Shown here: positions 34,568-47,144 of the stretch, piece after piece
Layout of the letters: each line of letters begins with the position of its first letter
How positions within the stretch are numbered: the stretch's first letter is position 1
NCBI GenBank assembly: GCA_020439745.1
Contig: JAGQSC010000036.1
Coordinates: 1-64,000 of the forward strand
Source: Acidobacteriota bacterium
Lineage (GTDB): Bacteria > Acidobacteriota > Holophagae > Acanthopleuribacterales > Acanthopleuribacteraceae
Direction: 5' to 3'
DNA length: 64,000 bases
Program-made: the position numbers and the translations under genes
Notes under the pieces: generated by a model
Database searches by the model: none
Seen by the model: the letters and a program-made list of their open reading frames with translations, nothing else
Told to the model about the DNA's origin: nothing

Positions 34568-36763
34568 TCAACGCACTTGTGCAGTCACTAGGTCTCGGTA
34601 AGTCCCAGCCTTGGCCATGAGTTCTGAGTGGGTGCCTTGTTCTGTGATTTGGCCGTCTTTCAAAACAGCAATTATGTCGGCATTTTCAATGGTGCTCAAA
34701 CGTTGGGCAATGACCACCTTGGTGCATCGCAAGCTCTTCAGATTCTGTTGAATACGGCGCTCTGTGACCGTGTCCAATGCGCTGGTGGCTTCGTCTAACA
34801 GCAGGAGGAACGGGTCATGAACCAAGGCACGTGCCAAGGCCAATCTTTGTCGTTGACCGCCGGACAGGGTGGTCCCTTCATCCACCAAGATCGTGTCATA
34901 ACCCAAAGGCATGTCGAGAATCGTCGTGTGGATTTCAGCGATCTTGCAGGCCTTTACGACGCGTTCGAAGGGAGCGTCTGGCCTAGCCAGTACCAGGTTC
35001 TCGCGAATAGTGCCCGGAAATAGATATGGATGCTGCAAGACGACACCCATTTGCCTGCGTAACATGCGAAGATCCCATTCGTGAATGTTCGTGTCGTCCA
35101 GTGTGATTCTTCCATCGGTGGGTTTGAATAAGCCCGCAAGCAGGCTCCCAAGCGTGGACTTACCTGAACCAGATTGACCCACTAGAGCAAGCGTTAGGCC
35201 CGGTTCCAGTTCGAGGTTGATATGTCTCAAGACATCATTGGCTTGGGCATCGTAGCGAAATCTCAACGATTCTATCCTTAGCCTGCCCTGCAGTTGTGGT
35301 GGAGGCACCACGACATCAGCACCTTGCTCAGTAGGTGTGTGTACGACGTCGTCGATCCGGTCGAGAAGTGCCCCTAGGTCTTGAAGTCTGAGGCCCATGT
35401 CCACCAGTGAGGAAAGCGGTCCCAGGAAGCCTTCTGCAAGTGCGTTCAGGGCCAGCATCGTGCCTAAGGTCATTTGGCCACTGAGTACCAAATGTCCGCC
35501 GAAAATCAGTAAGATTAAAGGTGAACCCATCCTGGTGGCATCCATCAGGCTGTCGGTCCATGCCATCAGTCGACCCTTCCTGATATTCACATTCATCACA
35601 TTCACAAAGAGGTTGGACCATCGATCCACGGCATGGAATTCGGCACCGCAGGTTTTGAGGGTCTGCATGCCCCCTAACATCTGAACCTGATAGCTCTGTG
35701 ATTCAGCTTCTGCTTTGAGGTTCTCGGCCACAAGGTCTCGAACCCGTTTGCGAGCGAACACGAAAATCAAAAGCCGCACAGAGCCCAGCAACAACACCAA
35801 CGCACCGATTGCGGTACTGACCAAGAACAACGCGACTAAATAAAACATGACCAACACACCGTCCATCAGTGTGGACAAGGCTGATGAAGTTAAGAGATCG
35901 CGGATACTGGCATTGGAGTTGAGTCTCATCAAGAGGTCACCGGCGCCTCGCCTCTGGAAGAACGAGAAAGGCAGACGGACCATATGATCGACAAAGTCAA
36001 AGGTGAATTGCAGATCGAGTTTGCTTTGAAGGAACAACAATAGGTGGGCTCGAATAACAGAAGCCATCAGTCGGAAACCCACAATGGCGGTAAAGCCCAT
36101 TCCCATCAAGGTGAGAAGGGAGTAATCCCGATGGGGGACGACACGGTCGACCAGAGCACCTGTAAGCACTGGCAGGGCTAGAGCCAATAGCTGAATCACC
36201 AGAGCTAACGTGACGATTCGCAGGATCCACCCACGCGATGTGAGAATCTTGGCAAGATAGTGGCGAATGCGCGTGAAGGGGTTTTCTGCTTCAGACCCCT
36301 CAAACGACTCACTTTTCTCAAAGATCAGGGCCACGCCGGTAAAGCTCTTGTTCAATGCAGCCGCCGCCATTTTTCGCCGGCCAAAGGCTGGATCGATCAC
36401 CATGAATGCATCGTTGTTCACCCGTTCCAATACGACAAAGTGGTTGAACTCCCAGTGGAGGATAGCGGGTACCGACAACTGGCTGATTTGGTCGCAACTC
36501 ACTTTGACGGCGCGTCCGCGTAACCCGAAGTGCCTTGCTGTTTGCAACAGCGCGGCTGCGGATGTCCCGTCGCGTCCTAGTCCAACGGCCTCTCGTACTT
36601 CGCTCAATTTTGTGGATTTGCCGAAATAGGACAAAATCATGGCCAGACATGCTGCACCACATTCAGCGGCCTCCATTTGTTGGATGACGGGTATGCGAGG
36701 TTTTGGTTTCTTCCATTGAAGGCGCTTCAGCGCAGAGAATTGCCGCCAGGACTCAACGCTCAT
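34568..36763 (-). CDS. C39 peptidase / ABC exporter of the lanthipeptide operon (LanT)
   Basis: A 731-residue bifunctional exporter. The N-terminal C39 peptidase has MEAAECGAACLAMIL (Cys35 nucleophile), HWEFNHFVVLE (His) and VIDPAFG (Asp). Six membrane helices follow from about 170 to 440, then an ABC ATPase with GQSGSGKSTLG, LSGGQRQRLALARAL and LLLLDEATSALD. It would cut the lanthipeptide leader after the double glycine and export the core. It belongs to the NHLM/lantibiotic exporter type that works with HlyD-like adaptors. The gene is last in the operon and overlaps the GAF-adaptor gene by 11 bases. Confidence 0.93.
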   Translation of the reverse strand: MSVESWRQFSALKRLQWKKPKPRIPVIQQMEAAECGAACLAMILSYFGKSTKLSEVREAVGLGRDGTSAAALLQTARHFGLRGRAVKVSCDQISQLSVPAILHWEFNHFVVLERVNNDAFMVIDPAFGRRKMAAAALNKSFTGVALIFEKSESFEGSEAENPFTRIRHYLAKILTSRGWILRIVTLALVIQLLALALPVLTGALVDRVVPHRDYSLLTLMGMGFTAIVGFRLMASVIRAHLLLFLQSKLDLQFTFDFVDHMVRLPFSFFQRRGAGDLLMRLNSNASIRDLLTSSALSTLMDGVLVMFYLVALFLVSTAIGALVLLLGSVRLLIFVFARKRVRDLVAENLKAEAESQSYQVQMLGGMQTLKTCGAEFHAVDRWSNLFVNVMNVNIRKGRLMAWTDSLMDATRMGSPLILLIFGGHLVLSGQMTLGTMLALNALAEGFLGPLSSLVDMGLRLQDLGALLDRIDDVVHTPTEQGADVVVPPPQLQGRLRIESLRFRYDAQANDVLRHINLELEPGLTLALVGQSGSGKSTLGSLLAGLFKPTDGRITLDDTNIHEWDLRMLRRQMGVVLQHPYLFPGTIRENLVLARPDAPFERVVKACKIAEIHTTILDMPLGYDTILVDEGTTLSGGQRQRLALARALVHDPFLLLLDEATSALDTVTERRIQQNLKSLRCTKVVIAQRLSTIENADIIAVLKDGQITEQGTHSELMAKAGTYRDLVTAQVR

Positions 36764-38924
36764 GGGACCCCCCGACCACGGATTTCAGTGCTGGAATCAA
36801 GCTCATCAGGATGGATTCAGATCTCAACTTGATCTGGACCTCGCCTGTCATGCCATTGACCAGTGAGAAACTTTGGTTGTCCAGTTCAATTCTCGGGTTT
36901 TCCACTTGGGCATAGACCAGGGTAACCGGAGCGTTCATGCCCAGCATGTCCTGGGCTTGCGGACCCATGATACGGGTCGCCTCAGCCGGGCTGATGACTC
37001 CTTGACTGGTGCGATCGACCTTCAACTGGAGATCGTGCTCATAGCCATTCACGCGAAAACGGACCGTCATGCCTTCACTCAGTTGTGGTGCGAAATGGCC
37101 CGGCACACATCCAATTAAGGAAAAGGTTGGGTTTGGCTTGGTTAGGGTGAGCGCTATTTCACCAGACTGAAACCACTGGCCGTCGTGAATGCGCAGGTCA
37201 CTAGTGACGCCATCGTGGGGCGCACGAATCGCATTGCGCTCGATCGCTTGAAATAAGGCGTCGCGTTCGATGCGCAGTTGTCGAAGGGCCTGTTCAGAGG
37301 TGGGGTCGGATGGGTCCAGTAGTCGCTGAACCAAGTGGGTATTCCATCCTGCATCTAGTGCCTGCTTCCGGTCCTCTTGGTCCTGGGTCGTGATGGTGAA
37401 AAGGATTTGTCCAGCTTGAACTTCGGCGCCGGAAGGTACCTGAATCCCTTTGACGATTCCTGATCTCAATGCGGTGACCCGGGTTTCCTGGTTGGCTTGG
37501 ATCAAGGCTGGGCCCGTTGCATATTGGCTGACGCGGCCAATGGCTGCAAAGAGCAGCGCTATCGTAAAGATCACTGCCACACTTGCAAAGGCCCAACGTT
37601 CCCAAAATGGTGAAAACGGCAAAATGTCACCTTCGGAAAGTGGGTTGAGATGTCGTGTTGCCAAGGCCTCCTCATTGAACAGATGGGCGTTTTTGTTTCG
37701 CTGCTGTTGGCACATCATTTCAAATGACGTCTTGAGATTTTGAGCGATCAAGGGTGCGGCGAACAGGTCGCAAATCAGTGAACAAATCTGTTCTTCCTGA
37801 GATCCAAAGGGTGGGTCTTTGCGCGAGCGGGACACAGCAAGGATGCCGGCATTGCCTTGTATGTCCCTAAACGGTGCCAGTAGCACGCGGTCATCGGCAT
37901 CGCCCAACACATGGTCTGAAGTCGGGTCAAATGCACGGTGTGTGGCCAGCCGATCGAGATTGGTGAGTGTTCCTGTAGCGAGCACACAACCAAGGACACC
38001 TCGTCCGGTGGGAACAGTGACCCCCGATCCAACCAGCGAACCGTCGTAAGGATTGTTCATGAGACATATCGCTGCTTTTCCTTTGTTCAAATCAATCATG
38101 GATTTTGCCGCGAAATCCAAGGTGTCGCGAAATTCTCGCTGAATCGATAGTCGGCTGGCAGCTGCTTGCACTCTGGAAAGGTATTCCGATCGCAGCATCA
38201 GGCTGAGTCCACCGTCCAAACGCGCTGTCATATGACGTGCATAGTCCTGAAGAGATGCTTGAATCAATTGTTCGAGCATGTTGGGTTCGAGCCGTTGCGG
38301 ACCGATAAAATAAGCGTCGTCATCACCATTCGTTGGCGAAAAGACAATGAGATTCGTGAATCGAGCTGGATAGGTCCATTTCAAAGTACGCCACTGTGTT
38401 GCGGTCAATTGTTGATTGCCATCTGCCAACACAAGTAATGTGGCTACCTCCTCTTGCCGCAGAATCTCCATTGCTGTTTGAAAATGACTTACTTCTTTGC
38501 CTTCAAAGTTGAGTGGCTTTGCGGAACCAAGCCTGAGCGTCAACAGTTGAGCATGTGCACGTAAGTTGGCTCTGAGTCGAAATGTCATGGGATCAGAAGG
38601 CAGGAATGTCAATCCCGCTACCCCGATATCTGTTCCGTCGTCCAGACGCCGGATGGGGTCGACTAAACGGACCTGACACCAAACCTGTACCGTGGTCGAT
38701 TGAGGGGATAGCTTTGCCGCCAATAACCCATGATCGCCCGGTTTGAGATGGGCGTTCAGAGGATCATCGTAGAATACGAGTACGCCATGATCGTCCATGT
38801 ACCGCAGCTGCATCGTCTGCCATGTACCGTTCGACAAGAACTGAGCAGCTGCCGGTAGCCGGTAAACGGACGGATCGTCCTTTTCGGAGTACTTGCCTCC
38901 CCGTATTGCTTCAAAAGTGGTCAT
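36753..38924 (-). CDS. GAF-containing HlyD-type membrane fusion protein
   Basis: A 723-residue fusion. Residues 1-250 form an unrecognised region with a beta-rich, PilZ-like start (GTDIGVAGLTFLPS). Residues about 262-400 look like a GAF domain (LDFAAKSMIDLNKGKAAICLMN in part, VTVPTGRGVLGCVLATG, LLAPFRDIQGNAGILAVSR). One membrane helix lies at about 444-463, and residues 464-723 form a HlyD/lipoyl adaptor (ALRSGIVKGIQVPSGAEVQAGQ in part, IRAPHDGVTSDLRIHDGQW). The adaptor half should be periplasmic and dock the exporter, with the GAF half in the cytoplasm. Overlaps link it to both neighbours (14 and 11 bases). A ligand-gated exporter is inferred. Confidence 0.85.
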   Translation of the reverse strand: MTTFEAIRGGKYSEKDDPSVYRLPAAAQFLSNGTWQTMQLRYMDDHGVLVFYDDPLNAHLKPGDHGLLAAKLSPQSTTVQVWCQVRLVDPIRRLDDGTDIGVAGLTFLPSDPMTFRLRANLRAHAQLLTLRLGSAKPLNFEGKEVSHFQTAMEILRQEEVATLLVLADGNQQLTATQWRTLKWTYPARFTNLIVFSPTNGDDDAYFIGPQRLEPNMLEQLIQASLQDYARHMTARLDGGLSLMLRSEYLSRVQAAASRLSIQREFRDTLDFAAKSMIDLNKGKAAICLMNNPYDGSLVGSGVTVPTGRGVLGCVLATGTLTNLDRLATHRAFDPTSDHVLGDADDRVLLAPFRDIQGNAGILAVSRSRKDPPFGSQEEQICSLICDLFAAPLIAQNLKTSFEMMCQQQRNKNAHLFNEEALATRHLNPLSEGDILPFSPFWERWAFASVAVIFTIALLFAAIGRVSQYATGPALIQANQETRVTALRSGIVKGIQVPSGAEVQAGQILFTITTQDQEDRKQALDAGWNTHLVQRLLDPSDPTSEQALRQLRIERDALFQAIERNAIRAPHDGVTSDLRIHDGQWFQSGEIALTLTKPNPTFSLIGCVPGHFAPQLSEGMTVRFRVNGYEHDLQLKVDRTSQGVISPAEATRIMGPQAQDMLGMNAPVTLVYAQVENPRIELDNQSFSLVNGMTGEVQIKLRSESILMSLIPALKSVVGGSHER

Positions 38925-39798
38925 GGTCTTTCGGTTCCAGGAATACTTGGCAACTTGCGCCGGCGGGGGGATAAGAGTCGGCTTGAATCTGGCCCAGACA
39001 AAAGACTAATTGTGTGGGCTCATCGCGCTCAGGAGCTATGGACGTGACAACCCCTTGGTAGCGCATTTCAAATCCCATGAGTTTGAACGAGTCACCGGTA
39101 CGAATTTGACGGGTCAGATCGGGAGGGACCGCGAATCGAACGACGCCACGTGAAGGCGCTGTGACACTTAACATGGTTTGGCCTTGGCTGATGGTTTGGC
39201 CTAGTTTCAGTTGGATATGTTGAACCGTGCCTGAGATGGGTGAAACGATGTCAGTTTGGCTAGATTGTCGTATCAAAGCGTCCAGACGAATCTGTGCTTG
39301 CTGCTGCTCGGATTTGGCGGCGGATACGCGATGATCAGTACGCGCCAACTGCAACTCGGCTTCGCGTATCTCCGCGGCTGGATAGATAGACTGCGAAGCC
39401 CTCATCCGTTCAAGGTTCTCTTGCGCCTGGATTTGGTTGAGTTTGGCTTCTTCCAGAGCCGTGCGCGAGGCACGGAGGCTTGCTTCTGCGAGTTTCATGT
39501 CATCTGCCAGGTGATGGGCTTCCAACTGGACCAAGACTTCTCCTGCATCCACATTCGCGCCCTCGCGAACCTGCATCTGTTTGACAAACGCGTCCATGGG
39601 GCACGACAAACGAACCACTTCGTCCGACAACACCACACCCAAGAATGAAGGACTTTCAAGATGGTGTGTTTGACTTCGTCTTTGATCAGGTTCATCAACT
39701 TTGGATGCTTCAAGATCGACGCGAGGCGGATGGCGAAAGGCTAGCCATAATGCCGATGCACCCATCAGTCCTGCAAAAACGAGCAACGTCTTCAACAT
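38911..39798 (-). CDS. HlyD-family membrane fusion protein
   Basis: A 295-residue adaptor: one N-terminal membrane helix (LKTLLVFAGLMGASALWLAF), a lipoyl half (VKQMQVREGANVDAGEVLVQLEAHH in parts), a coiled-coil hairpin of about 75 residues rich in Ala, Glu and Arg, the second lipoyl half (ISGTVQHIQLKLGQTISQGQTM in parts) and a beta-barrel end. It would bridge the inner-membrane exporter and an outer-membrane channel. No outer-membrane channel gene lies nearby. The start is set at ATG 39798, overlapping the LanM stop by seven bases; the frame extends 11 codons further. Confidence 0.87.
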   Translation of the reverse strand: MLKTLLVFAGLMGASALWLAFRHPPRVDLEASKVDEPDQRRSQTHHLESPSFLGVVLSDEVVRLSCPMDAFVKQMQVREGANVDAGEVLVQLEAHHLADDMKLAEASLRASRTALEEAKLNQIQAQENLERMRASQSIYPAAEIREAELQLARTDHRVSAAKSEQQQAQIRLDALIRQSSQTDIVSPISGTVQHIQLKLGQTISQGQTMLSVTAPSRGVVRFAVPPDLTRQIRTGDSFKLMGFEMRYQGVVTSIAPERDEPTQLVFCLGQIQADSYPPAGASCQVFLEPKDHDHF

Positions 39799-42700
39799 GA
39801 TTCTGGGTAAGCCAATGCCAATGGATTGCAAATGGGTTGGCTGTAGCTAAGGTGTTCGAGCGCTAAACCAATCCCTGCCAGGCCACACATGAGACCGGGT
39901 ATCATGATCGGCACATCGATACCACAACGTGGACCGGATTGCTCAATCTGTTGACGTGCCATGAGTTCCCATCGGTACAAAGTGTCTTGAACGCCTTGAT
40001 TGACCAAATCAGAGGGATCCAAACTCTTCATGAGCAGTTCGGCCACCCACAGATTGCCGAGAATGCCGTGGCACAGACTGTGGTTGCCAATTGCGCCCCG
40101 GGCAAGGGTATTGTTCAGAGCCACGCGTATCTCTTGCCGCGTTGGATCGTCTCGGTAGCGATTGGGCATTAACGCGCGGCCTAATCCCACGCCCGGTGCG
40201 CCATGGCACCATTGACTCTCGTAATGTGGACCGGAACCCAACTCTCGCAGATCGGGCCAGTTCCCCAGTTTGGCATTGAAATGAGATCGCTCGTAGGTCA
40301 ATGCCCGAACCACGGTTTCCTCAATAAGGCCCACCAAGTATGAATGTCCGCCAATACGGTCCAAGGTGTCCGCTGCGCGGGCAAGAGCGCAGGCTATGCC
40401 TGCATTTCCGTGAGAGAACCCCAAAAGACCGGCGGGACTCTTTGAAAAGGGCCAAAAGCAGCCATCGTCATGCTTCACGGCCGAGCTGACCAGATGTCGA
40501 CTGCAGGCAATAATCAAGTGGACAGCACTGTCCGAGGGACACCGCGCGTGGATGGCACAAGCGTGCATCAGGGTGCCTGCTGCGCCTGCAATGATGTCGA
40601 AGAATCCGTCTTCTGAAACATTGTCGGCAAGGTATTTCATGTTTTCAGTGAAAGCGGGTAGGTCACCGAGACTGGGATCATGAGCGGCCATCTGGACCAT
40701 GGCGTAATACATGGAGCAAGTTCCGCTATAGCCGCCGTGCACCGCAAATTCATGGACGTCGATGTTCTGTCTCAATTCACGGAATATGCGATGAGTTACG
40801 TCCCGTATCTTTGGGTCATTGTTTTTGTGTTGAATCACGCTGAGAAACCAACCAATGCCACCATTGCCCCCATACAAATCGCTGCCGGTGGGATTAAACG
40901 TCCATGCACCGTCAGGTAGGATATCCATGCTTAACCAGGCTGCATCTTCTTGTCCCAAAAAGACTGAACGCATGAGTTGTTGGGTGATGTCGTCTCTTTG
41001 CTTGTTGGTATTCGAGACATTCCCAGATTGGTGTTGGGTCATGATGGAACCCACGGTCCCTTGAATGACAAAACACTGGTCCTGCATGTCCGAATCGCTC
41101 ATGGCGTTCAATCGGTGCATCATGTGATCAAAAGCCGAGATATGATCCAAGTCGCAGACATGGTTACCGCGACTGTCGCGTAATGAAATTTCGTCGGTCC
41201 TGGTCCAAAAGAAGGGAACATCTCCCGATCGCAGGTCTGACTTCTCATGGGGGACAATGCTTTGGTGAATTAATGAGGGTCCGTTTGATTTCCAAAGGTG
41301 ATCAAAAAGGTTGTCGCGGTCAAATCCGTGACGCATGTGGTCGGGATGGAGACCATCGTACAGAAGGTTTGAGTAGATCTTGGTGCCGCGCAATACAACA
41401 CGCGTCTTGACCCCTTTGAAACCCCGTAGGAGTTGTCCTAATTCGTTCTTTTGGGTTGAGATGAATCGGTACATCCATGTGAAACCTTGAATCAAGTCGC
41501 CAACGTGGTCGGTTACGGAAATGGCTTCACCGTCTTTGCTGGGTAGGTTGTCCGAGCGTTGGAGTTCCTTTTCGACGCGAATCTGGCGCATCTCGTCTGT
41601 ACCTGAACCTGCCCAATCGGGTACGGCACTTGGTAGGGTTTGCGCTTCTGCAGAGCCGAGTCCTCCCAAGTGGACGCCAGCTTGTTTGGCGCCACCCCAA
41701 ACCCGCCTAGGCAACATGCCCGTCTGCAGCACCGACTGCGACAGCCAGGAATAGGCATGGTCCCTTGCTGTCTTGCTGGGCGCGTATTCAGGGGATGGAT
41801 GTAGCAGTGTCTCCAAATCCACAAGTACGGGGTAAGACCCATGAGCAATGAGGTTCTCATGATGGAAATCAGTCGCACCTAACAGGTATAGGAGTGCCAA
41901 ATACGCGCCCTGGCGCCAGTAGAATTGGGTGATGCCACGGTTTGTGGTTTCTTGGCGAGACACGAAACTGCACCAGCCGTACTCGCCCCGATCAATGACG
42001 TCCGGGTAAACAAAAAGCGGACGATCCACGTCTTTGGATGTGGCGCTGTCGTTTATCCATTGCAGCAGCTTGTGAAACTGATGGTCTATGGCAAGCGACT
42101 TTGGTTTGTATACCAGTTGTGTTCGTGCGCCTTGGGCATTCTCAAAACCCAACATCCACACTGACTGGCCGCCACAGTGAAGATCAGATGCTCCACCCCG
42201 TGCATGAGTCCATTGTGCACCGGGGCATTCGGCCAACAGGCCGGCATCCAGTTGGTGCAAATCTGTCTTGACTCGATCGATCAGTAGTTGTGCGTTTGTG
42301 ACCCATCGGATGAGCGTCTCGGACACCAGTCGTGCAAGCACTTGGTACTCAGAAAATAGTCGCTGCCAGCCCTCGATGGTGCCAAGGATGCGGTTGCGGA
42401 AGTCGAGGAATCTCTGGTGCGGGGTGTCGCCCTTTAGTTTCTCTTCGAGTCTCGCTACGTTCAATTCCAAAACCAGCACACGGTGGCAGAGTCTGGTGAG
42501 TTGCTGGCAGAGGTCGTCCAATAGCTGAGGTTTCAGACGAATAAGATCCACGCGTTTGCAATCGTCGCTCGTGTTCAACTGCCGCCAGGCATAGTTGAGG
42601 AACGGGATCAGCGCGGGCGCGAAACTAGCGTCCTTATCAAATGAAGGGTGATGGGGTGCGGCTTCCCAACAATCGAAAACATCACACAGTTGACGGAGCC

Positions 42701-42968
42701 ACAGCTCCTTGTGATTTCCCATGCACCAATCGATGGTTGCCTGTGGTGCATCGTAGTGCCACTGTGTGTGCTGCCAGTGGGCAGCAAGAACACCCTGGTG
42801 CAGACCCTCCTGGATGACCTTGTTTCGATAATGAGATTCATCCAAACGAGCTCGTTTTGAGTAGTGGGCCTTGAATTGGTCGATCAGGTCCGGTTTGGGG
42901 TCGCAGCTTTCCCCGCTCAGTTCGTTGGGATAAGTAGCTCGCAAAAGGGTGTCAATTTGCGTAGACAT
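39792..42968 (-). CDS. lanM: Type 2 lanthipeptide synthetase LanM
   Basis: A 1058-residue bifunctional enzyme. The N-terminal DUF4135 dehydratase uses ATP to phosphorylate and eliminate Ser/Thr; its kinase-like motif TDFHHENLIAHGSYPVLVDLE (in parts FHHENLIAHG and VLVDLETLLHP) lies near residues 366-390. The C-terminal LanC-like cyclase carries the zinc ligands Cys921 (QWCHGAPG), Cys966 and His967 (SLCHGILGN). All key residues are present, so the enzyme should install (methyl)lanthionine rings in the product of the gene just upstream. Length is typical. It follows the precursor by about 120 bases, across a strong hairpin, and begins with ATG preceded by AAGGAGC-like spacing. Confidence 0.95.
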   Translation of the reverse strand: MSTQIDTLLRATYPNELSGESCDPKPDLIDQFKAHYSKRARLDESHYRNKVIQEGLHQGVLAAHWQHTQWHYDAPQATIDWCMGNHKELWLRQLCDVFDCWEAAPHHPSFDKDASFAPALIPFLNYAWRQLNTSDDCKRVDLIRLKPQLLDDLCQQLTRLCHRVLVLELNVARLEEKLKGDTPHQRFLDFRNRILGTIEGWQRLFSEYQVLARLVSETLIRWVTNAQLLIDRVKTDLHQLDAGLLAECPGAQWTHARGGASDLHCGGQSVWMLGFENAQGARTQLVYKPKSLAIDHQFHKLLQWINDSATSKDVDRPLFVYPDVIDRGEYGWCSFVSRQETTNRGITQFYWRQGAYLALLYLLGATDFHHENLIAHGSYPVLVDLETLLHPSPEYAPSKTARDHAYSWLSQSVLQTGMLPRRVWGGAKQAGVHLGGLGSAEAQTLPSAVPDWAGSGTDEMRQIRVEKELQRSDNLPSKDGEAISVTDHVGDLIQGFTWMYRFISTQKNELGQLLRGFKGVKTRVVLRGTKIYSNLLYDGLHPDHMRHGFDRDNLFDHLWKSNGPSLIHQSIVPHEKSDLRSGDVPFFWTRTDEISLRDSRGNHVCDLDHISAFDHMMHRLNAMSDSDMQDQCFVIQGTVGSIMTQHQSGNVSNTNKQRDDITQQLMRSVFLGQEDAAWLSMDILPDGAWTFNPTGSDLYGGNGGIGWFLSVIQHKNNDPKIRDVTHRIFRELRQNIDVHEFAVHGGYSGTCSMYYAMVQMAAHDPSLGDLPAFTENMKYLADNVSEDGFFDIIAGAAGTLMHACAIHARCPSDSAVHLIIACSRHLVSSAVKHDDGCFWPFSKSPAGLLGFSHGNAGIACALARAADTLDRIGGHSYLVGLIEETVVRALTYERSHFNAKLGNWPDLRELGSGPHYESQWCHGAPGVGLGRALMPNRYRDDPTRQEIRVALNNTLARGAIGNHSLCHGILGNLWVAELLMKSLDPSDLVNQGVQDTLYRWELMARQQIEQSGPRCGIDVPIMIPGLMCGLAGIGLALEHLSYSQPICNPLALAYPESC

Positions 42969-43052: not shown

Positions 43053-43080
43053 GGGACGAGAGGCGGCTACCTCTCGTCCC
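43053..43080 (-). promoter_or_regulatory. Perfect 11-pair hairpin between precursor and lanM
   Basis: GGGACGAGAGG (43053-43063) and CCTCTCGTCCC (43070-43080) are perfectly complementary around a six-base loop. The hairpin starts ten bases past the precursor stop and lacks a T run on the minus strand. Such an element usually works as a partial terminator or as a 3' stabiliser, giving much more precursor message than enzyme message. Confidence 0.75.
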
Positions 43081-43090
43081 ACCGACTTAC

Positions 43091-43363
43091 TTAGCAGGCC
43101 ACCGCAGAGTAGATGCAGTCACATACCGTGTGGTTGGACGACCAGCAGTCGAACGTGGGGCAGACGGCAGGCGCCGTACAGTTGCTGGTACAGATCCAAG
43201 GCTTGGTATTACATCCCGAACGGCTCAGCCAACCGCCAGCGGCATGAACTTGTTCAGCCTCTTCAGCGGTCAATTCCTGCATGCCTGCAGGGTGGTCAGG
43301 AACGTTCGTAGCCGTTTCCCGGAATGCTTCATCTTTCCATGCGCGCAGTATGTCTTTTTTCAT
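43091..43363 (-). CDS. lanA: Mersacidin/lichenicidin-type lanthipeptide precursor (LanA)
   Basis: A 90-residue precursor. The leader (1-44) opens MKKDILRAWKDEAFRETA, the pattern of the mersacidin/lichenicidin family, and ends ELTAEEAEQVHAAGG with a double glycine for C39 cleavage. The predicted core is 46 residues (45-90), starts WLSRSGCNTKPWICTS and ends CIYSAVAC. It holds eight Cys and eleven Ser/Thr, so up to eight thioether rings are possible; the final residue is Cys. AAGGAG sits seven bases before ATG. Only one precursor is visible and no LanFEG immunity genes are seen. Core length and Cys number exceed most mersacidin relatives. Confidence 0.93.
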   Translation of the reverse strand: MKKDILRAWKDEAFRETATNVPDHPAGMQELTAEEAEQVHAAGGWLSRSGCNTKPWICTSNCTAPAVCPTFDCWSSNHTVCDCIYSAVAC

Positions 43364-43653
43364 AACTTTCTCCTTAGATTGTTGGTTTGAGGTCCCATCA
43401 AAACCATGAAGAGCCGAGCTGCTGGCGAAAGGGCCCAGCGTCAGGTTTCACGACACACCACGGGTTGCTGGTCAACTCCCCCGACCCTGCGACAAGGCGA
43501 TTAGGTTGTGAATTGGGGTCTCGTAAAGGTTCAACGCAAAAGGTGTGAAAACCCCGCCACATTTTTTTGTGGTGGTCGTGATCTGTGTAGCGTTGGTTTG
43601 CATCGGTAATCGTCCATGAGTTATAGTGACCTTATTCACGACAAAAACACATC
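43364..43653. promoter_or_regulatory. Divergent control region of the lanthipeptide operon and ECF sigma gene
   Basis: These 290 bases separate the precursor (leftward) from the ECF sigma gene (rightward) and hold no credible gene, so both promoters should lie here. CCACA / TGTGG arms (43557-43561 and 43568-43572) flank a run of T. I cannot assign reliable -35/-10 boxes for either direction. Confidence 0.55.
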
Positions 43654-44198: not shown

Positions 44199-47144
44199 AT
44201 GGACATCGATCAACTCAGGTCAATTGACCAAGCCTTTCAAGATGTGCTGGGTGAGGACGAGCCGCACCGTTCACACCTTCTACGGCGGTTGCGCCGGAAT
44301 TCTCCTGCCATCGCCGACGCTGTATTGGAACTTCTGAAAAACATGGATGCAGCGAACGAATACTTGGACCAAGTCCATCGCAAAGCGATTGACGAATGGA
44401 CGGGTGGCTGTCCGCAACCCGCTTCTCCGGTGGGGGAAGGGTGTCAGTTAGGTGCCTACAAGTTGCTTGCCCCTTTAGGACAGGGTGGCATGGGTAGTGT
44501 CTTTCTTGCCGAACGGTCCGATGGTGCCTTTGAGAAACAGGTGGCTATTAAGGTGATGCGTTATGCGCTGCCTCGGCCTACCGATCTGGATCGATTCCGT
44601 AAGGAGTGTCAACTGCAAGCGCAATTGGAGCATCCCAATATTGCACGCGTCCTTGATTCCGGAATCGAAGGCAGTACGTCATTCTTGGTGATGGAGTATG
44701 TTCAAGGCGAACCCATTGACCAGTACTGCTCGGCGCGATCGCTATCTGTCCGTGAACGTTTGCAACTGTTCGTGCAAGTATCGGACGCCGTACAGTACGC
44801 TCACCGCAAGCTGATCCTGCACCGAGACATCAAGCCATCCAATGTACTTGTTGACGAAGAGGGCCGTGTCAAATTGCTGGACTTTGGAATCGCGAAGATA
44901 CTCAGCGACCAAGATGATACGACGGCAACAGGTTTGCGGATGTTCTCGCCCGGTTACGCCAGTCCAGAGCAGTTGCTAGGTCTGGAGTTGACGACGGCCT
45001 CAGATGTTTATAGCCTTGGCGTTCTTTTGTTCGAGCTCTTAACGGGGGAAAAACCATTTTCGGAATCGCCCGTTGGACGCGTGTTCAGCGATTGGAAACA
45101 GTTGCCGCAGCTTCCCAGCAGTTGCCTGAGTGATGCCGAGTCCGGACCGGGTTCGAAGCATTTTTGCGCCCAATTAAAAGGCGATTTGGATAGCTTGATT
45201 TGCAAGGCACTTGAACCTGAAGATAGTCGGCGATACCACACCGTTGATGCCTTACGTCATGAAGTTGTTCGTTATCTGAACGGATTGCCCATTGAAGCTC
45301 GAGGCGACGCCTGGTCGTATCGAATTAGGAAGTTCGTGGGCCGTCACCGAACGGCCGTTGGTGTTGGTTTTCTTTTTGTCAGTGTGCTTATGGGTTTCTC
45401 CGTGGTGACCGCTATCCAGTCACGACAAATAAGCGCCGAACGTGACAAATACCAGCAAATGACGGATCACCTGACCGAACTGATCCACTCCTCCGATCCC
45501 GATCAATTTGGTGGTGAAGTTCTTTTTGCCGATGTGTTGAAGTCGTTTTCTGAAAAGCTGGAGAACTCGAAAGACTCAGCCAATAAGGCAAAAGTGCTTT
45601 CGATTATGGGCGAGGCCTATGAGAACCTGGGTCATTATCAAGAGTCAGAAGCATTGTTACGTCGGGCGCTGGCTATTCAATCCAGCGAACTGGGCGATCT
45701 TCATACAGATACCCTGTTTTCCCAACAGGTATTGGGGATCGTGCTTTTGCATTTGGGTATGCGCAGCGAGGCCGAAACGCTTGTTCGTGACCTGATCGAA
45801 AAACGCGTACAGAAGGACGGCGCTTTGCATCACGAAACCTTGATGGCCCGTCAATTGTTGGCCGTCGTGATTGGCGAACAGGGTCGTTATGAAGAGGCTA
45901 GGGAGGCCTTGCTTCAGGTGGTCGCACATCTCGAATCTTTTGGAGAGGGCGATGAAGGCTATTTGGGTGCCTTGGAGAATTTGGCGCGTTATGAATGCAA
46001 ATCCGGCCACCAGGACGAGGGTCTTGCTCGAATGCGCAGCACACTGGCTTTGAAGCAAAGAGTTTTTGGTCGTAATCACCCGAATACTTTGTCTGCTTGG
46101 GTCAACTTGGGTGCCGAGTTGGTGAACCGAAATGACAAACAGGAGGCGACTCGTGTGTTGGAGGAGTCTCTGGCCGCGCATCGAGAGGTGTATGGCCCGA
46201 ACCATCCGAAGACGTTTGCTGCCGAGCAAAATGTGGCCCGTCTGTTCAACCTCATCGATCGCAGCGAGGAAGCACTTGTGTTGGCAGAGTCCTGTCTCAA
46301 TGGGAAACGGGAAGTATTGGGCGAGATGCATCCATCCACGTTGGCTTGCCAGAGCGTACGCATCAGCATCTTACGGCAATTGGGCAGGCATGAAGAAGCA
46401 CTCACGGCAGCGTGGGAAAACGAACGTGCGCAAATCCAGGTGACTGGAGCAGAACATCCACATACTATTTTTGCGATGGACATGGTGACCACATTACTTT
46501 TGGATCTCCACAGATTTGATGAGGCCAGGACCCAAATTGAGAAAACCCTGATCGTCAAGACTCAGACTTTCGGCCCCAACAGTCAACAAGTCATTGCCTC
46601 TATGGCCAACTTAGCAACTGTGCTGCAAAGTGATGGACGCCTCCGTGAGGCAGTGGCCTTGAAGGAGGATGTGCTCGATCGCCTAACCTGTGACGTCGAT
46701 GCAGTGTCCTCTTCGCAACTGGTCTATATGAACAATCTAGCCATGGGCTACAAGGCCAATGGCCAATTCGATCGATCCGAGGAAGTATTTCTCGAGTGTC
46801 TTCGTCAGTATCAAACCATTGAGGGTCCGACCCATTTCTATACGGTATGTACTGAAATCAATGTGACCGATGTATTGCGACTTGGCGGGAAGTTGAATGA
46901 AGCTCACACCATGGCTGAGTTAGCTATGAACCATGCGGATCTCTACCTTCCGTCGGGACACCCTCGGGTGGCATTGGCGTTGAACAACTTGGCAATGGTC
47001 TGGTTTGAATTGGGTCATCAGGCCGATGCCCATGAAGCTTTGATGATGGCTTTGGCCATGGTTCCACCTGAGCATCCCTTCGCAACACGGTTCGAAGAGA
47101 ATCTCCGTTTGTTAGAGCCCGACCTGAAGTTGGCACTCCATTGA
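44199..47144 (+). CDS. Serine/threonine protein kinase with transmembrane helix and TPR array
   Basis: A 981-residue receptor-like kinase. The kinase domain (about 85-355) has LGQGGMGSVFLA, AIKVM, LHRDIKPSNVLV (208-210 HRD) and LLDFGIAK (228-230 DFG), so it should be active. A membrane helix lies at about 386-406. Residues about 430-975 hold roughly twelve TPR units with the kinesin-light-chain-like phrase HPNTLSAW / HPKTFAAE / HPSTLACQ every 42 residues. The TPR part would be periplasmic and may bind a partner. ATG 44199 with GAGGAAC upstream is the start; the frame runs back into the sigma gene in another frame. Likely cotranscribed with it. Confidence 0.9.
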   Translation: MDIDQLRSIDQAFQDVLGEDEPHRSHLLRRLRRNSPAIADAVLELLKNMDAANEYLDQVHRKAIDEWTGGCPQPASPVGEGCQLGAYKLLAPLGQGGMGSVFLAERSDGAFEKQVAIKVMRYALPRPTDLDRFRKECQLQAQLEHPNIARVLDSGIEGSTSFLVMEYVQGEPIDQYCSARSLSVRERLQLFVQVSDAVQYAHRKLILHRDIKPSNVLVDEEGRVKLLDFGIAKILSDQDDTTATGLRMFSPGYASPEQLLGLELTTASDVYSLGVLLFELLTGEKPFSESPVGRVFSDWKQLPQLPSSCLSDAESGPGSKHFCAQLKGDLDSLICKALEPEDSRRYHTVDALRHEVVRYLNGLPIEARGDAWSYRIRKFVGRHRTAVGVGFLFVSVLMGFSVVTAIQSRQISAERDKYQQMTDHLTELIHSSDPDQFGGEVLFADVLKSFSEKLENSKDSANKAKVLSIMGEAYENLGHYQESEALLRRALAIQSSELGDLHTDTLFSQQVLGIVLLHLGMRSEAETLVRDLIEKRVQKDGALHHETLMARQLLAVVIGEQGRYEEAREALLQVVAHLESFGEGDEGYLGALENLARYECKSGHQDEGLARMRSTLALKQRVFGRNHPNTLSAWVNLGAELVNRNDKQEATRVLEESLAAHREVYGPNHPKTFAAEQNVARLFNLIDRSEEALVLAESCLNGKREVLGEMHPSTLACQSVRISILRQLGRHEEALTAAWENERAQIQVTGAEHPHTIFAMDMVTTLLLDLHRFDEARTQIEKTLIVKTQTFGPNSQQVIASMANLATVLQSDGRLREAVALKEDVLDRLTCDVDAVSSSQLVYMNNLAMGYKANGQFDRSEEVFLECLRQYQTIEGPTHFYTVCTEINVTDVLRLGGKLNEAHTMAELAMNHADLYLPSGHPRVALALNNLAMVWFELGHQADAHEALMMALAMVPPEHPFATRFEENLRLLEPDLKLALH

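What the first reader, a model, noticed from the sequence alone, without database searches (positions are those of the whole stretch)
43091..43363. Mersacidin-like leader on a long core with eight cysteines
The 44-residue leader matches the mersacidin/lichenicidin type and ends in AAGG. The predicted 46-residue core has eight Cys and eleven Ser/Thr and ends in Cys. Mersacidin itself is about 20 residues with few rings, so ring number and length here point to a different topology.
Basis: partly seen in the sequence, partly recalled or inferred. Interest (0 to 1): 0.8.

Follow-up and report, generated by a model that had tools for sequence, protein, structure and literature searches.

The report
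Eight-cysteine lanthipeptide in uncultured Holophagae
This gene encodes the precursor of a secreted, thioether-ringed peptide with a well-known type of leader but an unusually long, cysteine-rich body that could carry eight rings, kept almost unchanged in one related species; the kind of system is known, this product is new.

Summary
The ORF at 43091-43363 (-) is real. It encodes a class II lanthipeptide precursor, followed on the same strand by lanM, two HlyD genes and a C39-peptidase ABC exporter (lanT). Its leader passes NCBI's mersacidin/lichenicidin model (38.8 bits, cut-off 23.5), and LanM keeps the twelve catalytic and zinc residues checked. A second species of the genus (MAG OFTM365) has the same cluster: precursor 78% identical, LanM 56%, all eight Cys kept. 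No other genome searched has the core. Among 23 other acidobacterial family cores, Cys counts are 3-6 and lengths 18-44. In both orthologues every Cys can be paired with its own upstream Ser/Thr 2-6 residues away (about 1% of shuffles do as well). Eight rings would exceed the seven published as the known maximum; higher counts exist as predictions. One correction: the GG doublet sits two residues off the family register; C39 recognition positions favour AA|GG (48-residue product) over AAGG| (46). A hairpin with identical stem lies between lanA and lanM in both genomes and nowhere else in them. Ring number, topology and activity are inferred, not shown.

The parts
43091..43363 (-). lanA, precursor peptide of 90 residues
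   Evidence: TIGR03898 38.8 bits; orthologue in G001
43094..43237 (-). core if cut at AA|GG (48 residues, favoured); 43094-43231 if cut at AAGG| (46 residues)
   Evidence: register and C39 positions
43370..43375 (-). ribosome-binding site AAGGAG
   Evidence: read from sequence
43053..43080 (-). hairpin between lanA and lanM
39792..42968 (-). lanM, class II lanthipeptide synthetase
   Evidence: TIGR03897 756.7 bits, cut-off 304; catalytic residues
38911..39831 (-). HlyD-type adaptor (true start may be the ATG at 39798)
   Evidence: PF13437
36753..38924 (-). long HlyD-type adaptor with large N-terminal region
   Evidence: PF13437; GAF sub-threshold
34568..36763 (-). lanT, C39-peptidase ABC exporter
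   Evidence: PF03412, PF00664, PF00005
43654..44175 (+). ECF sigma factor, divergent; one of several paralogues
   Evidence: TIGR02999 163.6 bits; 10 in the genome
44200..47144 (+). Ser/Thr kinase with TPR repeats (ORF listed from 44055; start at 44200 is my reading)
   Evidence: PF00069, PF13424

Best explanation
The locus makes and exports one polycyclic class II lanthipeptide. LanM binds the mersacidin-type leader, phosphorylates Ser/Thr in the core and eliminates the phosphate, and its zinc cyclase domain adds the Cys thiols to form up to eight thioether rings. Proposed layout (46-residue numbering): a string of small rings, S3 or S5 to C7, T9-C14, T15 or S16 to C18, T19-C24, T26-C29, an interlocked pair S31 or S32 to C37 with T35-C39, then S42-C46. 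LanT cuts the leader off and pumps the peptide out, helped by the two HlyD adaptors, more likely at AA|GG, giving a 48-residue product. Shown here: the genes, family assignments, intact catalytic residues, conservation in a second species, and availability of an upstream donor for each Cys. Inferred: number and pairing of rings, cleavage site, export route, and the role, most likely an antibacterial peptide, less likely a signal or structural peptide of the producer.
For: Leader over the TIGR03898 cut-off and LanM over the TIGR03897 cut-off. LanM D262, H264, K288, D367, H369, N372, D384, R523, T529 and C921, C966, H967 match CylM's dehydration and zinc residues (alignments, roles from PMC4550811 passages, letters). 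Same gene order plus divergent sigma/kinase in OFTM365. Precursor 69/88 identical against LanM 591/1054 (p 2e-5); core alone 33/44 against LanM (p 0.009). All eight Cys pair one-to-one with upstream Ser/Thr at spacing 2-6 in both orthologues; 1.2% and 0.6% of 5000 shuffles do as well.
Against: No product was observed. Only two genomes carry the core, so conservation rests on one pair. At spacing 2-5 the orthologue reaches 7 of 8 pairings, and at 2-8 the shuffle fractions rise to 4.6% and 2.3%. Roseocin alpha keeps two Cys in a disulfide, so eight Cys need not mean eight rings. lanT (72%) and sigma (74%) are not significantly less conserved than the precursor. No immunity gene was recognised among the conserved cluster genes.
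Confidence: 0.7

Rival explanations
1. Still a class II lanthipeptide, but with fewer thioethers: some Cys form one or more disulfides, or some donors stay undehydrated, as in roseocin alpha.
For: Roseocin alpha has four thioethers and an indispensable disulfide (PMC10027976). Eleven donors but only eight Cys; published bridge numbers in the mersacidin-containing group are 3-5 (PMC11251773).
Against: Each of the eight Cys has its own upstream Ser/Thr in both orthologues, more than in nearly all shuffles.
Confidence: 0.35
2. The product is cut at AAGG| and is the 46-mer.
For: GG is the standard C39 doublet (PMC10885120) and AAGG is kept in both orthologues.
Against: The doublet is two residues out of the family register and leaves Q38 at -7.
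Confidence: 0.4
3. The peptide serves the producer itself (signal, morphogen or envelope peptide) rather than attacking others.
For: Precursor better conserved than LanM; no immunity gene recognised; regulatory sigma/kinase pair stays with the cluster.
Against: The sigma family has 10 members in this genome, so its presence is weak evidence; one species pair only.
Confidence: 0.25
4. The ORF is a chance or decayed reading frame.
For: None found.
Against: Family match, position and orthologue.
Confidence: 0.01

Closest known systems
Mersacidin / lichenicidin family (class II, TIGR03898)
   Same: Leader over the model's cut-off; LanM; C39-type LanT.
   Different: Core of 46-48 residues with 8 Cys; the mersacidin-containing group is given 3-5 bridges in PMC11251773 (passage). 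No CTxxxEC lipid II motif (motif recalled; the core has no Glu). Doublet out of register.
Acidobacterial mersacidin-type precursors found here
   Same: Same leader family, some in the same taxonomic family.
   Different: 23 others have 3-6 Cys and 18-44 residues; no similarity seen in the core.
Roseocin family (RosM, Actinobacteria)
   Same: Class II with heavily ringed cores; [quoted passage not shown]
   Different: Two-peptide system of another phylum with conserved GCC motifs that this core lacks.
Geobacillin I and elgicin
   Same: Seven thioethers, the highest number among known lanthipeptides according to PMC11251773 (passage).
   Different: Class I (LanB and LanC; class from recall for elgicin), not LanM; one bridge fewer than possible here.
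tha cluster of coral Acidobacteriota (ThaA, ThaM, ThaO)
   Same: Class II synthetase and Cys-rich core from the same phylum, tested experimentally (PMC13083261 passages).
   Different: Two dehydrations plus a thiazole made by a GMC oxidoreductase; no such enzyme is among the genes of this cluster.

Membership tests
Class II lanthipeptide | Bifunctional LanM next to the precursor, with dehydratase and LanC-like domains | tested here: met
Class II lanthipeptide | LanM catalytic and zinc residues intact | tested here: met
   12 of 12 residues equivalent to those of CylM; the zinc residues were placed through the LicM2 alignment
Class II lanthipeptide | Lanthionine or methyllanthionine in the product | not testable with these tools
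   needs mass spectrometry
Mersacidin/lichenicidin leader family (TIGR03898) | Leader over the curated cut-off | tested here: met
   38.8 bits against 23.5
Mersacidin/lichenicidin leader family (TIGR03898) | GG, GA or GS doublet in register at the end of the leader (typical, not required by the model) | tested here: inconclusive
   AA in register and GG two residues later in both orthologues; of 23 others 12 have GG in register, 9 have G then V or L, 1 has GS, 1 could not be placed
Mersacidin/lichenicidin leader family (TIGR03898) | C39-peptidase exporter in the cluster | tested here: met
   PF03412 in lanT
Mersacidin-type lipid II-binding antibiotics | CTxxxEC-like ring motif (recalled) | tested here: not met
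   the core has no Glu; the nearest stretch CPTFDC is CASSQC in the orthologue
Roseocin family | S/TxxxxTxGCC or GS/TxxxxS/TxGCC motif | tested here: not met
   no adjacent Cys pair in the core

The most novel reading that the evidence does not exclude
A genus-specific class II lanthipeptide with eight thioethers, one more than the published maximum of seven: a string of small rings with one interlocked pair, cut by its exporter at an unusual Ala-Ala|Gly-Gly site, and under stronger constraint than its own synthetase, which would point to a fixed target or an own-cell role rather than a fast arms race.
Probability: 0.3. Interest if true: 0.6.

Novelty: new variant of a known kind. Interest (0 to 1): 0.45.

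Why it matters
It extends mersacidin-leader lanthipeptides to a core about twice the usual length, in a phylum whose products are only beginning to be tested. The two natural orthologues give a ready-made test of whether one LanM can install eight rings in order, and the out-of-register leader end tests what C39 exporters really read: the helix positions or the Gly-Gly.

Tried and rejected
Viral contigs: no match to six peptide patterns of the precursor. Plasmids, tblastn: ten weak hits, four of them lantibiotic precursors and six Xanthomonas plasmids (five annotated TraM-type, one without annotation). PDB: no hit for the precursor. PADLOC: only kinase matches, to the TPR kinase. Small-ORF filters around those LanMs found no comparable Cys-rich core; such filters can miss precursors. 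Promoter and terminator scans were empty. Structure prediction of the long HlyD protein was unusable (mean pLDDT 37.6) and was not searched; a PilZ-like N-terminus, suspected by eye, is unproved, and GAF is sub-threshold. dN/dS could not be used: synonymous divergence is saturated or undefined in most genes. Literature: 'Holophagae' with 'lanthipeptide' gave 0 papers, in one open-access library only. The 'eight cysteine' paper hit was irrelevant.

Full report
What is there. The ORF at 43091-43363 (-) encodes a 90-residue peptide with a good ribosome-binding site (AAGGAG, 43370-43375). Its first half matches TIGR03898, mersacidin/lichenicidin family type 2 lantibiotic, at 38.8 bits against a cut-off of 23.5; Pfam has no match. 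The next genes on the same strand are a type 2 LanM (756.7 bits), an HlyD adaptor, a second and unusually long HlyD-type adaptor, and a C39-peptidase ABC exporter. Facing them is an ECF sigma factor followed by a Ser/Thr kinase with TPR repeats.

Where it comes from. The window lies in G000 (5.1 Mb, 65 contigs). Its only congener in the sets searched, G001, has a contig of the same length as Holophagae bacterium OFTM365 (JAJCXM010000004.1, 486,746 bases), so this is an uncultured member of that class. OFTM numbers are used for MAGs from a marine subsea tunnel (passages and abstract of PMC10732223; that OFTM365 belongs to the same set is inferred).

Conservation. Of 61 genomes (own plus 60 relatives), only own and G001 match along the full length. 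The core alone was found in 2 of 93 genomes of the class, own included. A two-row profile over 396 genomes of the phylum gave matches in 14, full-length only in these two; of the 12 others, eight match in the leader and four weakly (E 0.003-0.009) in the core part, in frames that showed no leader. The shared unit is sigma, kinase, lanA, lanM, two HlyD and lanT; the genes beyond lanT in the stretch read from G001 have no orthologue in the window. Identities: precursor 69/88 (78%; leader 36/44, core 33/44), LanM 591/1054 (56%), adaptors 41.5% and 46.0%, lanT 71.7% over the 480 residues compared, sigma 74.4%, kinase 55.3%. The precursor is better kept than LanM (p 2e-5) and both adaptors; it is not significantly better kept than lanT or sigma. 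A published survey calls the mersacidin-containing group 'rapid' in precursor change relative to the cyclase (PMC11251773 passage), so this is a departure, but it rests on one pair of species.

The core. Eight Cys and eleven Ser/Thr (ten in G001); all eight Cys are kept although the stretch between the third and fourth is two residues shorter in G001. Taking only Ser/Thr on the N-terminal side at distance 2-6, all eight Cys can be paired one-to-one in both orthologues, in 8 and 4 ways that share one layout; 1.2% and 0.6% of 5000 shuffles of each core do as well. Other distance limits: 2-5 gives 8 and 7 of 8; 2-8 gives 8 and 8 with shuffle fractions of 4.6% and 2.3%; 3-6 gives 8 and 8 with 0.3% each (all). 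Rings in the opposite direction or wider than this were not considered. Among 23 other TIGR03898 cores from this phylum (those over the cut-off; some are near-identical pairs), Cys counts are 3-6 and lengths 18-44.

The enzyme. phmmer aligns LanM to LicM2 (6st5) and CylM (5dzt). The CylM residues named in PMC4550811 for phosphorylation (K274, D347, H349, N352, D364), elimination (D252, H254, R506, T512) and zinc (C875, C911, H912) (passages) correspond to K288, D367, H369, N372, D384, D262, H264, R523, T529, C921, C966 and H967 here. The zinc residues were placed through the LicM2 alignment, since the CylM alignment stops before the cyclase.

Cleavage. A review states that C39 exporters cut after GG, GA or GS and read hydrophobic residues at -4, -7 and -12 (and -15 in ComA) (passages of PMC10885120). 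For AAGG| these positions are A41, Q38, A33 (-15 is E30); for AA|GG they are V39, A36, L31 and M28 (L28 in G001). In 10 of 13 other family leaders with a GG, 13 residues lie between PAG and the doublet (12 in two, 11 in one); in both genus members it is 15. In the TIGR03898 register the doublet position is AA. I favour AA|GG slightly. A two-step trimming, as known for mersacidin (PMC8581636 passages), is also possible.

Hairpin. Between lanA and lanM is an inverted repeat GGACGAGAGG...CCTCTCGTCC. It occurs at one place in each of the two genomes, the same place, and not when read backwards as control. The stem letters are identical while the loop differs. The stretch folds better than all 200 shuffles in the window (z -3.65) and less clearly so in G001 (z -1.75; 7 of 200 shuffles as good). 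It has no T-run and was not called a terminator. It probably sets the precursor-to-enzyme ratio by stabilising or partly ending the lanA message; that is inference.

Role. No immunity gene was recognised among the cluster genes, and the sigma factor belongs to a family with 10 members in this genome, so regulation and target are open. I put an antibacterial role first because most characterised relatives of the leader family are antibiotics (established knowledge), and an own-cell role second because of the conservation.

Novelty. Known lanthipeptides reach seven bridges and one with eight is predicted in Tannerella (PMC11251773 passage); a nine-Cys roseocin-alpha homologue is in print as a prediction (PMC10027976 passage). 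Class II chemistry from this phylum has been shown for the tha cluster (PMC13083261 passages). So the kind is known; the core, its possible ring number and the shifted leader end are the new elements.

Noticed in passing
window 36753-38924 (-): HlyD-type adaptor with a region of about 440 residues ahead of the membrane segment; sub-threshold GAF match (E 0.14), 46% identical in G001. It might couple export to a cytoplasmic signal; the fold was not predicted with confidence.
   Followed up: partly
window 43053-43080: Perfect hairpin between lanA and lanM whose stem letters are identical in a related genome and found nowhere else in either genome.
   Followed up: yes
L053 4884-5126 and 5048-5434 (G005): Two adjacent mersacidin-type precursors with 28- and 31-residue cores (6 and 5 Cys, repeated CT pairs) beside one LanM; may be a two-peptide lanthipeptide.
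   Followed up: no
L091, L093, L094, L095, L100, L102, L103, L104, L106: Nine acidobacterial mersacidin-type precursors whose leader ends in SGV or SGL in the model register rather than GG, with cores ending in or near a Cys-Cys pair.
   Followed up: no
G000 and G001, whole genomes: 10 and 25 matches to the Sig-70_X6 ECF sigma family (two of the 25 below the cut-off), so the sigma factor beside lanA is one of many paralogues.
   Followed up: partly
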